A stretch of 64,000 nucleotides of DNA from Tardiphaga sp. 709 (GTDB lineage: Bacteria; Pseudomonadota; Alphaproteobacteria; Rhizobiales; Xanthobacteraceae): assembly GCF_032401055.1 (NCBI RefSeq), contig NZ_CP135529.1, positions 2,480,001 through 2,544,000 of the forward strand, written 5' to 3'. Below the pieces are notes generated by a model. It was not told the origin of the DNA, did no database searches, and worked only from the letters and a program-made list of their open reading frames with translations. Of this stretch, positions 4,046-11,276 are shown piece by piece; positions within the stretch are counted from its first letter, which is position 1; every line of letters begins with the position of its first letter. The translations under genes were made by a program, and so were the position numbers.

Positions 4046-4879
4046 ATGAAAGCAATGATCGTTGCCGCCGGGCTTCTGGCTTTGGCCAGCCCCGCATTCG
4101 CGCAGTCGCAGGAACCGCTGAAGTCTGCGATCGACTCAACCTTCGCGCCGCATGCGATGCCCAAACTGTCGGGCGGCCTCGAAGGCTTCAATATCGACGT
4201 CGTCGATGAGATGTCGAAGCGCATCAAGCGCCCGATCACGGTGGAAGGCGCGCAATTCGCCGGTCTCCTTCCGGCGCTTCAGGCCGGCACCTACGACTTC
4301 CTCGCCGCTGTGGTCACCGTCACGCCCGAGCGTGCGCAGCAGTTGCTGTTCATGGAAGGCTTCGTCGACGCCGACTATCGTTTCATGACGCTGGCTTCGG
4401 CACCTCCCATCACCAAGCTCGAAGATCTCTCCGGCAAGACCATCGCCGTGCAGAAAGGCGCGATCTACGAGAAATGGGTCAACGACAATGCCGCCAAATA
4501 TGGCTGGAAGTCGGAATCCTTCGCCACCAGCACCGACGCGGCGCAGGCCGTGCTCGCCGGCCGTGCGGACGCCAACATCTCGGCCGCCACCGTCGTTGCC
4601 TGGATCGTGAAGAACAATCCGCGGCTGAAGAATGCCTTTCTCTACAAGACGGGCCTCGTCTGGAGCATGCCGCTGCGCAACGGCAATACTGAATTGCGTA
4701 ACAAGCTCGAAGACGCGCTGGTCTGCATGAAGCAGGATGGCACGCTGAAGAAACTCTACGTGAAGTGGTTCGGTGTCGAGCCGGAGGCCGGTTCGGCGAC
4801 CACCACCATCTATCCCGGCTATGGCGCACCGGGCGTTGCCGGCTATGACCCGGCCGAGCAGAAACCGACCTGTTCATGA
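4046..4879 (+). CDS. Amino acid-type ABC transporter substrate-binding protein (SBP_bac_3)
   Basis: A secreted solute-binding protein of 277 residues, with a Sec signal ([19 protein letters not shown], cleavage before QSQ) and the SBP_bac_3 pattern: [16 protein letters not shown] near the N-terminus, and FDFLA- and [12 protein letters not shown] elements. The ATG at 4046 follows a perfect GGAGGT five bases upstream, so the upstream in-frame ATG at 4016 is rejected. The last four bases overlap the ATPase gene (ATGA). Its position at the head of an operon with a hydantoinase, DUF917 and urocanase-like enzymes suggests that it binds the compound those enzymes degrade, perhaps a histidine- or imidazole-derived acid; this is inference. 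Confidence 0.92.
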
Positions 4880-5637
4880 GTTCGGCAGCAGCAGCGCCTG
4901 TGCCCCGCTATCTGCTCGAAGCACGCGGCGTCCGGAAGAGCTTCGGCACCACAGAAGTCCTGAAGGGCGTCGATCTTTTGGTCGAGCCGGGCAAGCTGGT
5001 CTTTCTGATCGGCCCATCCGGCTCAGGCAAGAGTACCTTGCTGCGCTGTTGCAATCGTCTGGAGGAGCCGGATGGCGGCTCCATCATCATGGACAATGTC
5101 GACCTGCTGTCGCCGCGCACCGATATCAATGCCGCGCGGCGACAGATCGGCATGGTATTCCAGAGCTTCAATCTCTATCCGCACCTCACCGTGCAGAAGA
5201 ACATCACGCTGGCCCTGCGCAAGGTGGCCGGCATGAGCACCACTGACGCCAACACTCGCGCCGCGGAGATGCTGGCGCTGGTGGGCCTGCCCGACAAGGC
5301 GGCCGCCTATCCTGCGCAACTCTCCGGCGGACAGCAGCAACGCATCGGCATCGCGCGTTCGCTCGCGCTCAATCCCAAGATCATCCTGATGGACGAGCCG
5401 ACCTCGGCGCTCGACCCGGAACTGGTCGGCAGCGTGCTCGCTGTCGTGAAGGACCTCCGCGACCGCGGCATCACCATGGTTATCGCCAGCCACGAGATGA
5501 ATTTCGCCCGCGAAGCCGCCGACAAGGTCGTATTCCTCGATGGCGGTCTCGTCATCGAGCAAGGCAGTGCCGAAGACATCTTCCTGCGGCCGCAGGAAGA
5601 ACGTACCAAACGTTTTCTCGCGCAGATCAGGCACTAG
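4876..5637 (+). CDS. Amino acid-type ABC transporter ATP-binding protein (GlnQ/HisP family)
   Basis: A cytoplasmic ATPase of 253 residues with Walker [11 protein letters not shown]-loop in [14 protein letters not shown], signature [16 protein letters not shown] and Walker [15 protein letters not shown]. This is the GlnQ/HisP branch that powers polar amino acid importers. It overlaps the binding-protein gene by four bases and is followed after three bases by the first permease gene, so translation is probably coupled. It would energise the two permeases at 5641-7001. Confidence 0.95.
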
Positions 5638-5640
5638 GCC

Positions 5641-9598: not shown

Positions 9599-9617
9599 GA
9601 CACGACAGGAGTCCGCC

Positions 9618-11276
9618 ATGACATCAGCGAATCCACGGCACCCCGATTTTCCGATTCCTGGCGGCCCAACGCTGCGCGCCAAGGGCTGGCGGCAGGAAGG
9701 TCTGTTGCGGCTTCTGGAAAACGTGCTCGCGGTCGGTGAGGATCCGTCGAATCTCGTCGTCTATGCGGCGCTGGGGCGCGCGGCCCGTAACTGGCCCGCA
9801 CACAAGGCCATCGTGCAGGCGCTGACGACCATGGAGGAAGACCAGACCCTGGTCATTCAGTCCGGCAAGCCGGTCGGCCTGCTGCGCACCCACGCCAAGG
9901 CGCCGCTGGTCATCATGGCGAATTGCAACATCGTAGGACAATGGGCCAAGGCCGAGATCTTCTACGAACTCGAACGCAAGGGTCTGATCTGCTGGGGCGG
10001 ACTCACGGCCGGCGCGTGGCAATATATCGGCTCGCAGGGCGTCATTCAGGGCACCTACGAGATCTTCATGCGCATCGCCGAACGTCGCTTCGGCGGCACG
10101 CTCGCCGGGCGCTTCGTCCTCACCGCCGGGCTCGGCGGCATGGGCGGCTCGCAGCCGCTCGCCGGGCGCATGGCCGGCGCCGCGATCCTCACCGTCGACA
10201 TCGATCCGGAACGGGCGCGCAAGCGCAAGGAGATCGGCTATCTCGAAGTGATCGCCCCCGACCTTGATTCAGCGCTGGAGATGATCGCCGCCGCGAAGGC
10301 GGAGCGTCGCGCGTTGTCGGTCGGTCTTGTCGGCAATGCCGCCGATATCTATCCGGAAATCGCCCGGCGCGGCGTCATCCCCGATGTAGTGACCGACCAG
10401 ACCGCAGCCCACGATCTCGTCTACGGTTATGTGCCGCGCACGCGCTCACTCGAGGAAGCGCGCGTCATGCGCAAGACAGCGCCAGAACAATTGATGAAGG
10501 AGAGCCGCGCGTCGATTGTCGACCATGTGCGCGCGATGCTGACCTTCCAGGCGCGCGGCGCGGAAGTGTTCGACAACGGCAATCTCATTCGCACTCACGC
10601 CAAGGAAGGCGGCGTCACAAATGCCTTCGATATCCCGATCTTCACCGAAGCCTATCTGCGCCCGCTATTTGCACGCGCCATCGGTCCGTTCCGCTGGATG
10701 GCGCTGTCGGGCGATCCCGACGATATCCGTGCCATCGACGATCTCGTCCTGCGCCTGTTCGGCGACAACCAGATCGTCTCCAACTGGATCAAGCTCGCGC
10801 GCCAATACGTGCCTTTCGAAGGCTTGCCGGCACGCATCGCCTGGCTCGGCCATGGCGAGCGCAGCGAACTGGCGTTGGGCGTGAATGAACTCGTCGCCAG
10901 TGGCACGCTCAGGGGACCGGTCGCCTTCTCGCGCGATCATCTCGATGCCGCCGGCATGGCGCATCCGAACATCATGACCGAGAACATGCGCGACGGCTCC
11001 GATGCCATCGCCGACTGGCCACTGCTCGACGCCATGGCATTATGTTCGTCCCAGGCCGATCTCGTCGCCGTCCACTCCGGCGGCGGAGGTTATGCCGGCT
11101 ACATGACCAGCGCCGGGGTCACCCTGATCGCCGACGGCACGGCCGCCGCGGCAGAACGACTCGCCATGAGCCTCGACAACGACACGGGCCTCGGCGTCAT
11201 CCGCTACGCGGATGCCGGGTATGGCGAGGCCCTCGATGAGGTCTCGCTCAAGCACGTCCCGCATATACAACTCTAG
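9618..11276 (+). CDS. Urocanate hydratase family protein (thiourocanate hydratase-like paralogue)
   Basis: A 552-residue homologue of urocanate hydratase (HutU). Family blocks run in order: SGKPVGLLRTHAKAPLV (82-98), AGAWQYIGSQGVIQGTYE (131-148), the NAD-binding GLGGMGGSQPLAG (171-183), QTAAHDLVYGY (261-271), NAFDIPIFTEAYLRPLFARA (335-354), GPFRWMALSGDPDDI (356-370) and GRDHLD-like SRDHLDAAGMAHPN (438-451). The position of the essential Cys410 of Pseudomonas HutU, in GLPARICWVG, reads GLPARIAWLG here (Ala408). The usual HHGGG motif is HSGGGGYAGY. No hutH, hutI or hutG is nearby. These changes and the DUF917/hydantoinase partners suggest a substrate other than urocanate, such as thiourocanate or S-methylthiourocanate. 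AGGAGT precedes the ATG. Confidence 0.88.
   Translation: MTSANPRHPDFPIPGGPTLRAKGWRQEGLLRLLENVLAVGEDPSNLVVYAALGRAARNWPAHKAIVQALTTMEEDQTLVIQSGKPVGLLRTHAKAPLVIMANCNIVGQWAKAEIFYELERKGLICWGGLTAGAWQYIGSQGVIQGTYEIFMRIAERRFGGTLAGRFVLTAGLGGMGGSQPLAGRMAGAAILTVDIDPERARKRKEIGYLEVIAPDLDSALEMIAAAKAERRALSVGLVGNAADIYPEIARRGVIPDVVTDQTAAHDLVYGYVPRTRSLEEARVMRKTAPEQLMKESRASIVDHVRAMLTFQARGAEVFDNGNLIRTHAKEGGVTNAFDIPIFTEAYLRPLFARAIGPFRWMALSGDPDDIRAIDDLVLRLFGDNQIVSNWIKLARQYVPFEGLPARIAWLGHGERSELALGVNELVASGTLRGPVAFSRDHLDAAGMAHPNIMTENMRDGSDAIADWPLLDAMALCSSQADLVAVHSGGGGYAGYMTSAGVTLIADGTAAAAERLAMSLDNDTGLGVIRYADAGYGEALDEVSLKHVPHIQL

What the first reader, a model, noticed from the sequence alone, without database searches (positions are those of the whole stretch)
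4046..11276. Operon resembling the lower half of ergothioneine-type thiohydantoin catabolism
A GlnHQPP-type importer is followed by a hydantoinase-like enzyme, a DUF917 (S-methyl thiohydantoin desulfurase family) protein and a urocanate-hydratase paralogue, with a divergent LysR. Established knowledge: ergothioneine or S-methylergothioneine is degraded by a trimethylamine lyase, a (S-methyl)thiourocanate hydratase, a thiohydantoin desulfurase and a hydantoinase. Three of these steps are here side by side with a dedicated transporter, and no hut genes are nearby. The lyase is missing from the window, so the substrate may be thiourocanate itself, a related imidazole-thione, or supplied by an unlinked lyase. 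Linking importer and pathway in this order is my inference.
Basis: partly seen in the sequence, partly recalled or inferred. Interest (0 to 1): 0.75.

Follow-up and report, generated by a model that had tools for sequence, protein, structure and literature searches.

The report
Truncated ergothioneine-breakdown operon with own importer
A soil-type bacterium carries the later steps of a known pathway that breaks down the mushroom-type antioxidant ergothioneine, plus an importer, but its genome lacks the known first enzyme of that pathway, so it probably feeds on an intermediate that other microbes release.

Summary
In detail: binding protein, ATPase, two permeases, amidohydrolase, DUF917 and urocanase-like genes run in order at 4046-11276, with a divergent LysR. 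NCBIfam equivalog models assign the enzymes to the ergothioneine pathway above cut-off: thiourocanate hydratase 1029/930, thiohydantoin desulfurase 590/440, ErtD 780/600; the S-methyl models are not met. The last enzyme, ErtE, is encoded elsewhere (563/520). The first, ergothionase, is not found: the only PF00221 lyase is HutH, although the same search finds an ergothionase in 25 of 27 hydratase-bearing genomes of other families. Across 105 hydratase loci, quaternary-amine importers sit with the lyase (13 of 14; the 14th stretch was cut inside the lyase gene); other importers do not (0 of 20). The window's importer type is never beside a lyase (0 of 9), but two of its carriers have an unlinked one. 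Its binding protein lacks the Asp that normally holds an amino acid's ammonium group; relatives at 42-56% identity often lie in hydantoin operons. Best reading: a thiourocanate scavenger (enzymes near certain, ligand inferred). New variant of a known kind. A kinship-controlled test is underpowered but never contrary.

The parts
2658..3878 (-). divergent LysR-type regulator with two HTH_1 domains in tandem and one LysR_substrate domain
   Evidence: Pfam (two HTH_1 stretches); a relative at 29% identity or more in 40 of 105 hydratase loci, window included
4046..4879 (+). periplasmic substrate-binding protein, SBP_bac_3; carboxylate-type Arg kept, alpha-ammonium Asp replaced by Ala
   Evidence: Pfam; alignments (residue roles recalled)
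4876..5637 (+). ABC importer ATPase, amino-acid (GlnQ/HisP) type
5641..6342 (+). ABC importer permease A
6342..7001 (+). ABC importer permease B
7066..8445 (+). ErtD, hydantoin-5-propionate amidohydrolase
   Evidence: NF058538 779.9 bits, cut-off 600
8510..9598 (+). thiohydantoin desulfurase (DUF917 / S-Me-THD family)
   Evidence: NF058529 589.6 bits, cut-off 440; S-methyl model NF058532 273.2, cut-off 450; only PF06032 match in the genome
9618..11276 (+). thiourocanate hydratase (urocanase fold)
   Evidence: NF058530 1029.3 bits, cut-off 930; best solved chain 7ned 793 bits against 612 or less for other urocanases; tree

Best explanation
The operon is the lower part of the bacterial ergothioneine pathway, kept as a stand-alone scavenging module. 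The ABC importer takes up thiourocanate (the sulfur-bearing acrylate that ergothionase makes from ergothioneine) released by other organisms. The hydratase turns it into 2-thiohydantoin-5-propionate, the DUF917 enzyme replaces the sulfur by oxygen (releasing sulfide), ErtD opens the hydantoin to N-carbamoyl-glutamate, and an unlinked ErtE (C1:1731718-1732962) gives glutamate, ammonia and CO2. The tandem-HTH LysR is the presumed inducer-sensing regulator. Shown here: enzyme families, operon conservation, purifying selection, no ergothionase-family lyase found in the genome, this importer type never beside a lyase in the loci examined. Inferred: ligand of the importer, direction of flux, inducer. 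Recalled and not tested: the chemistry of the steps (Beliaeva et al. 2021, seen only as a reference entry).
For: Enzymes: all three above equivalog cut-offs, S-methyl models below theirs; the letters of 7ned score 1019 on the thiourocanate model and those of 8q9u 956 on the S-methyl model; window hydratase among the 61 locus hydratases of the tree. ErtE in the same genome. Lyase: one PF00221 gene only, a HutH at 674.5 bits, cut-off 539; 0 of 13 hydratase-bearing genomes of the family have an ergothionase-class hit against 25 of 27 in other families of the order (all 25 checked by sequence). Importer: of 105 loci, this type 9, lyase in the locus 0 of 9; other non-quaternary importers 0 of 11; quaternary-amine importers 13 of 14. 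The two genomes outside the family without an ergothionase, G417 and G500, carry the same importer (68-73%) next to DUF917 and hydratase, with ErtD unlinked. The importer changes state 4 times on the hydratase tree. Binding site: Asp of the alpha-ammonium pocket is Ala in 6 of 6 aligned (window included) and in Paracoccus, Arg kept; the second SBP_bac_3 importer type has Ser there in 3 of 3; in the own genome 8 of 10 other SBP_bac_3 keep an acid there. dN/dS 0.012-0.097 in 24 close comparisons.
Against: No ligand or growth data. The Asp loss is not specific: the 45-55% relatives on plasmids lack it too (Gly or Asn in 7 of 7 aligned), as do two weak SBP matches in the own genome. Two Rhizobium genomes with the same importer (L055, L069) do have an ergothionase, unlinked, and so do all four tested genomes with the second SBP_bac_3 type, so a lyase-free locus does not prove a lyase-free cell. 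G500 has a third-class HAL-like gene of unknown activity (GSIGAGDL; 28% to ergothionase, 34% to HutH); the window genome has none. Twelve of 105 loci have neither importer nor lyase. The kinship-paired test reaches no significance (4 supported pairs, 6 on all branches; 0 contrary; p 0.25-1). A lyase of an unrelated fold would escape a PF00221 search. The importer itself was searched for only in plasmids and in 385 genomes of the class.
Confidence: 0.6

Rival explanations
1. The strain degrades ergothioneine itself: the importer takes up ergothioneine and an unrecognised, non-homologous lyase in the genome removes trimethylamine.
For: Relatives L055 and L069 carry the same importer and an unlinked ergothionase, so there the imported compound could be ergothioneine. 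A lyase of another fold would not be seen.
Against: Loci with the lyase carry a quaternary-amine (OpuAC-type) importer (13 loci) or no recognised importer (59 loci); none carries this importer. The described ergothioneine importer EgtU belongs to the quaternary-amine class and uses an aromatic cage (PMC9732360 passages). No PF00221 gene other than HutH.
Confidence: 0.15
2. The importer brings in a later intermediate or related ring compound (thiohydantoin- or hydantoin-5-propionate, or general 5-substituted hydantoins), and the hydratase is used only when thiourocanate enters by another route.
For: Relatives at 42-56% identity lie in loci with hydantoinase, N-carbamoyl-D-amino-acid hydrolase or hydantoin-racemase-like genes in 10 of 20 genome loci, and in 5 of 7 plasmid loci scanned in the same call; their pockets lack the ammonium Asp in 7 of 7 plasmid copies.
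Against: Close copies (67% or more) were seen only beside DUF917 plus thiourocanate hydratase; in L233/L234 the locus is importer, LysR, DUF917, hydratase, without ErtD. None of the 20 more distant genome loci lies beside a hydratase. The three nearest of these (54-56%) have no hydantoin genes either, so the link with hydantoins is not general.
Confidence: 0.15
3. The substrate is another imidazole-2-thione or oxidised relative, for example 2-thiohistidine deaminated by HutH or a HAL paralogue, or the 2-sulfonate of urocanate.
For: One family genome (G100, L145) has a second, MIO-type HAL paralogue and a TRAP importer in its hydratase locus. A bacterial ergothioneine-sulfonate pathway has been reported (title seen as a reference entry in PMC13405746; not read).
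Against: The window genome has no HAL paralogue; the desulfurase is of the thiohydantoin class, which a sulfonate would not need (inference).
Confidence: 0.07
4. The cluster is a decaying leftover of a complete ergothioneine operon that lost its lyase.
For: In eight of nine genomes examined whose Rhizobium-type hydratase locus lacks the lyase, the lyase sits near a ubiE-ubiB-like pair while the rest of the operon is elsewhere, so a transfer of the moved part would naturally lack the lyase.
Against: All genes intact; dN/dS 0.012-0.097 in 24 of 24 close comparisons; ErtD over cut-off in 5 of 5 Tardiphaga-group genomes tested.
Confidence: 0.03

Closest known systems
Five-step bacterial ergothioneine catabolism (ergothionase, thiourocanate hydratase, thiohydantoin desulfurase, ErtD, ErtE); Beliaeva, Leisinger and Seebeck 2021, content recalled, title seen
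   Same: Hydratase, desulfurase and ErtD are equivalogs by NCBIfam and adjacent; ErtE present in the genome
   Different: No ergothionase found in the genome; ErtE unlinked; own SBP_bac_3 importer
Full rhizobial operon, e.g. Rhizobium johnstonii 3841 (L040): lyase-ErtD-ErtE-desulfurase-hydratase
   Same: ErtD 74%, desulfurase 76%, hydratase 80% identical, same order
   Different: Window lacks lyase and ErtE in the operon and has importer genes in front
S-methyl-ergothioneine pathway (S-methyl thiourocanate hydratase, 8q9u)
   Same: Same two enzyme superfamilies
   Different: Window scores below both S-methyl cut-offs (746.7 against 880; 273.2 against 450)
Ergothioneine importer EgtU (PMC9732360, abstract and passages)
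   Same: ABC importer for a histidine-derived thione (function level only)
   Different: EgtU is of the quaternary-amine class with an aromatic cage; the window protein is SBP_bac_3
Hydantoin-operon ABC importers (Alloyangia, Variovorax, Thioclava, Comamonas plasmids)
   Same: Same SBP/ATPase/permease subfamily, 47-55% identity in the binding protein, Asp lost
   Different: Beside dihydropyrimidinase and racemase genes, not beside a hydratase
Thiourocanate cross-feeding in gut anaerobes (passage of review PMC13405746; the primary papers were not read)
   Same: Organisms that use thiourocanate made by an ergothionase producer
   Different: According to the passage, anaerobic gut species and a thiourocanate desulfhydrase; here an alphaproteobacterium with the hydratase-desulfurase route

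Membership tests
thiourocanate hydratase (NF058530) | score over the curated equivalog cut-off of 930 bits | tested here: met
   1029.3 bits; own HutU reaches only 719.8 on the same model
thiourocanate hydratase (NF058530) | groups with the solved chain 7ned and apart from HutU | tested here: met
   (quick tree, SH-aLRT 99, no bootstrap; the outgroup branches are long)
thiourocanate hydratase (NF058530) | activity on thiourocanate and not on urocanate | not testable with these tools
   needs an enzyme assay
thiohydantoin desulfurase (NF058529) | score over cut-off 440 | tested here: met
   589.6 bits
S-methyl thiohydantoin desulfurase (NF058532) | score over cut-off 450 | tested here: not met
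   273.2 bits
S-methyl thiourocanate hydratase (NF058531) | score over cut-off 880 | tested here: not met
   746.7 bits
hydantoin-5-propionate amidohydrolase ErtD (NF058538) | score over cut-off 600 | tested here: met
   779.9 bits
complete ergothioneine catabolic pathway | N-carbamoyl-glutamate amidohydrolase ErtE in the genome | tested here: met
   562.7 bits, cut-off 520, C1:1731718-1732962, unlinked
complete ergothioneine catabolic pathway | ergothionase (PF00221, ergothionase class) in the genome | tested here: not met
   single PF00221 gene is HutH
GlnH-type glutamine importer | NF007029 over cut-off 303 and conserved alpha-ammonium Asp | tested here: not met
   104.4 bits; Asp replaced by Ala
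quaternary-amine / ergothioneine importer (EgtU, OpuAC class) | OpuAC-type binding protein | tested here: not met
   SBP_bac_3, no OpuAC match at E 0.001
hydantoin-operon importer subfamily (defined here) | sequence kinship and loss of the ammonium Asp | tested here: met
   45-56% identity; Gly or Asn in those, Ala here
hydantoin-operon importer subfamily (defined here) | adjacent D-hydantoinase and racemase genes | tested here: not met
   the neighbours are ErtD, desulfurase and hydratase
thiourocanate importer (proposed) | binds and transports thiourocanate | not testable with these tools
   needs a binding or uptake assay

The most novel reading that the evidence does not exclude
Ergothioneine breakdown in soil and plant-associated bacteria is split between producers, which take up ergothioneine through quaternary-amine importers and own the lyase, and dedicated scavengers of thiourocanate, which lack the lyase and have recruited several unrelated importers (SBP_bac_3, Liv, TRAP). 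The window would hold the first recognisable thiourocanate importer, recruited from a hydantoin-type importer.
Probability: 0.5. Interest if true: 0.68.

Novelty: new variant of a known kind. Interest (0 to 1): 0.55.

Why it matters
Ergothioneine is made by fungi and actinobacteria and reaches animals through soil and diet (abstract of PMC7653990, as listed). If lyase-free bacteria live on thiourocanate, its degradation in soil is a shared, cross-fed process, and a 'urocanase plus DUF917' cluster does not mean that an organism can attack ergothioneine itself. The importer type in the locus may serve as a readable marker of which compound a strain takes up, a prediction that one binding assay can test. 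It also warns that these hydratases carry the plain name 'urocanate hydratase' in public records.

Tried and rejected
S-methyl-ergothioneine route: rejected by model scores. True HutU: rejected by scores and tree. Unlinked ergothionase in this genome: not found within PF00221. Decay of the operon: rejected by dN/dS among close relatives; the same call against the distant L055 and L233 gives 0.147-0.654 over 15 comparisons, highest for LysR, with dS 0.74-1.4, too near saturation to use. A sharper claim from the binding-site Asp alone was dropped when the hydantoin-operon relatives turned out to lack it too. The first alignment of own-genome binding proteins used wrong reading frames for four loci and was replaced. 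The naive Fisher test (this importer type, 0 of 9, against 72 of 91 other loci over 15 kb, p 3.6e-6) ignores kinship; the paired test does not reach significance, so the p-value is not used as support. A search for a LysR operator (T-N11-A palindrome, 9 of 13 or better) between LysR and binding-protein gene printed none; that script also assumed a wrong LysR start, corrected to 3878 by reading the sequence. The PF00221 fragments in G117 (23-31 bits) could not be assigned to a lyase class. Literature: searches over open-licence PMC papers listed no paper on a thiourocanate importer or on this operon; I saw none of the primary pathway papers there, so absence is weak evidence. Hydratase surroundings were fetched for 8 of 8 family genomes that lack the window's operon type and for 8 of the 27 order genomes. 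For the importer relatives, 20 of 24 places other than the window were fetched. No structure prediction was run.
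Full report
What is there. The finding's coordinates are right. Downstream of a divergent LysR gene (2658-3878, minus strand) run, on the plus strand, a binding protein (4046-4879), an ATPase (4876-5637), two permeases (5641-6342, 6342-7001), an amidohydrolase (7066-8445), a DUF917 protein (8510-9598) and a urocanase-fold protein (9618-11276), with short or overlapping junctions; Pfam agrees gene by gene. 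A tRNA-Gln follows at 11587-11661. The window lies at 2,480,001-2,544,000 of contig 1 of a 6.36-Mb genome in two contigs, rated 100% complete. Its nearest named relatives in the hydratase search are two Tardiphaga strains and Bradyrhizobium sp. NFR13, 96-97% identical; I call this the Tardiphaga group, the window's own name being withheld.

What the enzymes are. NCBIfam has equivalog models for this pathway, and all three enzymes pass: thiourocanate hydratase NF058530 1029.3 (cut-off 930), thiohydantoin desulfurase NF058529 589.6 (440), ErtD NF058538 779.9 (600). The S-methyl counterparts fail: 746.7 of 880 and 273.2 of 450. The best solved relative of the hydratase is 7ned, 793 bits against 612 or less for other urocanases; the letters of 7ned score 1019 on the thiourocanate model and those of 8q9u 956 on the S-methyl model. 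In a quick tree of 64 rows the window falls among 61 hydratases from genome and plasmid loci, with 7ned outside them, then 8q9u, then the genome's own HutU (SH-aLRT 99 at both inner forks; the outgroup branches are long and the program warns of it, so the deep order is less sure). That 7ned and 8q9u are the published enzymes is recalled; the PDB copy names them only 'urocanate hydratase'.

What the genome has and lacks. The genuine HutU is at 4.23 Mb, with hutI- and hutD-like neighbours named by eye; it scores 966.8 on hutU and 719.8 on the thiourocanate model. ErtE, the last enzyme, is present but unlinked: 562.7 bits, cut-off 520, at 1731718-1732962. The only aromatic-lyase gene (PF00221) is a HutH, 674.5 on the hutH model with cut-off 539. 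The rhizobial lyase of the full operon scores 278.5 on PF00221 and matches solved ergothionase 6s7j best (158 bits against 132 for the best HutH chain), so the same search would have shown an ergothionase.

Lyase classes. Of 73 lyase loci read, 71 gave a match. The 17 with PF00221 scores of 194-299 bits are 45-75% identical to the rhizobial ergothionase and 25-28% to HutH; those of 435 bits or more are nearer HutH. One search read the 12 further ergothionase-class hits: 37-100% to the rhizobial ergothionase, 25-28% to HutH. Where a motif was printed, the class shows GSIGCADI, GSIGAADI, GSLGCADI or GSLGTADI in place of the ASG triad. A third class (435-451 bits, and the 420-bit hit of G500) shows GSIGAGDL and is 28-30% to ergothionase, 32-34% to HutH; its activity is unknown.

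Comparison across genomes. Of 80 loci kept from 216, most carry lyase, ErtD, ErtE, desulfurase and hydratase. In the window's family, 13 of 198 genomes searched have a hydratase over cut-off; none of the 13 has an ergothionase-class hit: ten carry only HAL-class genes, two have no hit and one has unassignable fragments (the last three are draft assemblies of 340-830 contigs). In the order, 29 of 397 genomes are over cut-off; the 27 not tested before were searched and 25 of them have an ergothionase-class gene, all 25 confirmed by sequence (11, G511 and G420, 12). The two that do not, G417 and G500 (one genus of another family), carry at the hydratase locus the same importer as the window (68-73% identity), a LysR and the desulfurase, with ErtD elsewhere (681-682 bits); G500 has the third-class gene named above. 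Some handles are one genome twice (G198/G107, G199/G088, G200/G066, G214/G431 give the same places), so the Tardiphaga-type operon was read in five distinct genomes: the window's, L005, L006, L007 and G026.

Importer class and lyase. I annotated 105 hydratase loci by tblastn: the window, the 80, eight family loci, eight order loci, eight plasmid loci; most reach 6-10 kb to either side. The window's importer type is in 9, none with the lyase. A second SBP_bac_3 type is in 5, Liv-type in 3, TRAP-type in 3, none with the lyase. The quaternary-amine (OpuAC) type is in 14, 13 with the lyase; the 14th, L236, ends inside the lyase gene that searches show there. No importer: 59 with and 12 without the lyase. 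Of these 12, seven have an ergothionase elsewhere in the genome (L057, L063, L072, L082, L084; L235, L240), three do not (L148, L149 and, with fragments, L150), and two (L272, L276) were not tested. At the level of whole genomes the picture is weaker than at the level of loci: of the window's importer type, the Tardiphaga group and G417/G500 lack the enzyme, L055 and L069 have it unlinked, and Paracoccus (L271) was not tested; all four tested genomes of the second SBP_bac_3 type have it; three of three Liv-type and two of two tested TRAP-type genomes lack it. Loci are not independent: on the hydratase tree the lyase state changes 6 times, this importer 4 times; in paired comparisons a non-quaternary importer goes with absence of the lyase in 1-3 of 4 supported pairs and never the other way, too few for significance.

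Where the lyase is in relatives. Nine loci without lyase, not cut by a contig end, were tested by genome (L055, L069, L031, L058, L061, L076, L063, L072, L082): all nine genomes have an ergothionase elsewhere. In eight of the nine it lies near a ubiE- and ubiB-like pair, directly behind it in seven, the site of the whole operon in L040 and others; L140 differs (flanking genes named by eye). So the lower genes can move without the lyase, and the importer can travel with them: L055 and L069 carry the window's importer type (69-77% identity) beyond the LysR gene. The window operon may have arrived this way, since its hydratase is 79-81% identical to Rhizobium copies and 69-74% to those of other family members. 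But the tree puts the Tardiphaga group on its own branch and not beside L055 and L069, so no donor is named.

The importer. The binding protein belongs to SBP_bac_3 but is below the cut-off of all 13 NCBIfam models it matches. Against AncQR (4zv1) it keeps the Arg that holds the ligand carboxylate, while the Asp that holds the alpha-ammonium group is Ala (residue roles recalled from LAO/GlnBP structures). Ala is shared by L006, L055, L069, L233, L234 and the Paracoccus aminophilus plasmid copy. In the own genome, 8 of the 10 other SBP_bac_3 proteins keep Asp or Glu there. This fits a ligand without an amino group but is not specific: seven relatives at 45-55% identity on plasmids have Gly or Asn. 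Those relatives are telling in another way: in 385 genomes of the class, 24 have a homologue at E 1e-50, the window's own at 100% and the others at 38-56%; of 20 places whose surroundings I fetched, 10 have hydantoinase, carbamoylase or racemase genes beside them and 0 a hydratase. Close copies (67% or more) were seen only beside the desulfurase and hydratase. P. aminophilus pAMI4 has the importer, two LysR genes, amidohydrolase, Zn hydrolase, DUF917 and 'urocanate hydratase', with a HAL-like gene (33% to HutH, GSIGAADL) about 3 kb before the importer; its chromosome was not searched.

Function under selection. Between the window and three Tardiphaga-group genomes, dN/dS is 0.012-0.097 for all eight genes in all 24 comparisons. 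A pathway without a substrate would hardly be kept like this (inference).

How it most likely works. Thiourocanate released by ergothionase-bearing neighbours is bound in the periplasm, imported, hydrated, desulfurated, opened and decarbamoylated to glutamate, with sulfide and ammonia as gains. A review passage reports that thiourocanate feeds gut anaerobes by cross-feeding (PMC13405746, passages read; the primary papers were not read), so the compound does become public in one habitat. The described ergothioneine importer EgtU uses an aromatic cage of the quaternary-amine class (PMC9732360, abstract and passages), the class that accompanies the lyase here. Rivals, in order: direct ergothioneine use with an unknown lyase; uptake of a later ring intermediate; a different imidazole-thione or sulfonate.

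Verdict. The enzymes are those of an already described pathway; the lyase-free, importer-equipped form is a new variant. The ligand is the open point and one binding assay would settle it.

Noticed in passing
window 2658-3878 (-), and the LysR genes at L024, L045, L055, L056, L069, L233, L271, L275, L146: The regulator has two LysR-type HTH domains in tandem; 10 of 10 locus LysR proteins scanned show two HTH_1 stretches. At L146 the protein is 684 aa, as if two LysR proteins were fused; the shorter ones may have lost the first effector domain.
   Followed up: partly
L143, L144, L145, L147 and L275 (beside the hydratase): A UbiD-like decarboxylase gene lies next to or within five lyase-free hydratase loci that have Liv or TRAP importers (family name from the annotation). 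Its role in this pathway is unexplained.
   Followed up: no
L145:4194-5807 (-): One family genome (G100) has a second, MIO-type histidine-ammonia-lyase paralogue with a TRAP importer in its hydratase locus, possibly another way into the pathway.
   Followed up: no
L117, L118, L119, L120, L325 and L263:4217-5713 (-): A third class of HAL-like genes (27-30% to ergothionase, 32-34% to HutH) shows GSIGAGDL, or GSIGAADL in L263, in place of the ASG triad.
   Followed up: partly
genome C1:3403501-3404874 and C1:4231418-4233025: hutH stands beside a flagellar-ATPase-like gene (named by eye), 0.83 Mb from hutU.
   Followed up: no
window 243-2584 (-) and about 12027-16704 (-): Flanking genes look unrelated to the operon: a Liv-type permease and binding protein on one side, thiolase-like, AMP-ligase-like and aminotransferase-like genes on the other (the last three named by eye from the sequences).
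   Followed up: no
window 11587-11661: A tRNA-Gln gene lies just downstream of the hydratase; tRNA genes are common insertion sites (recalled), but no island borders were sought.
   Followed up: no
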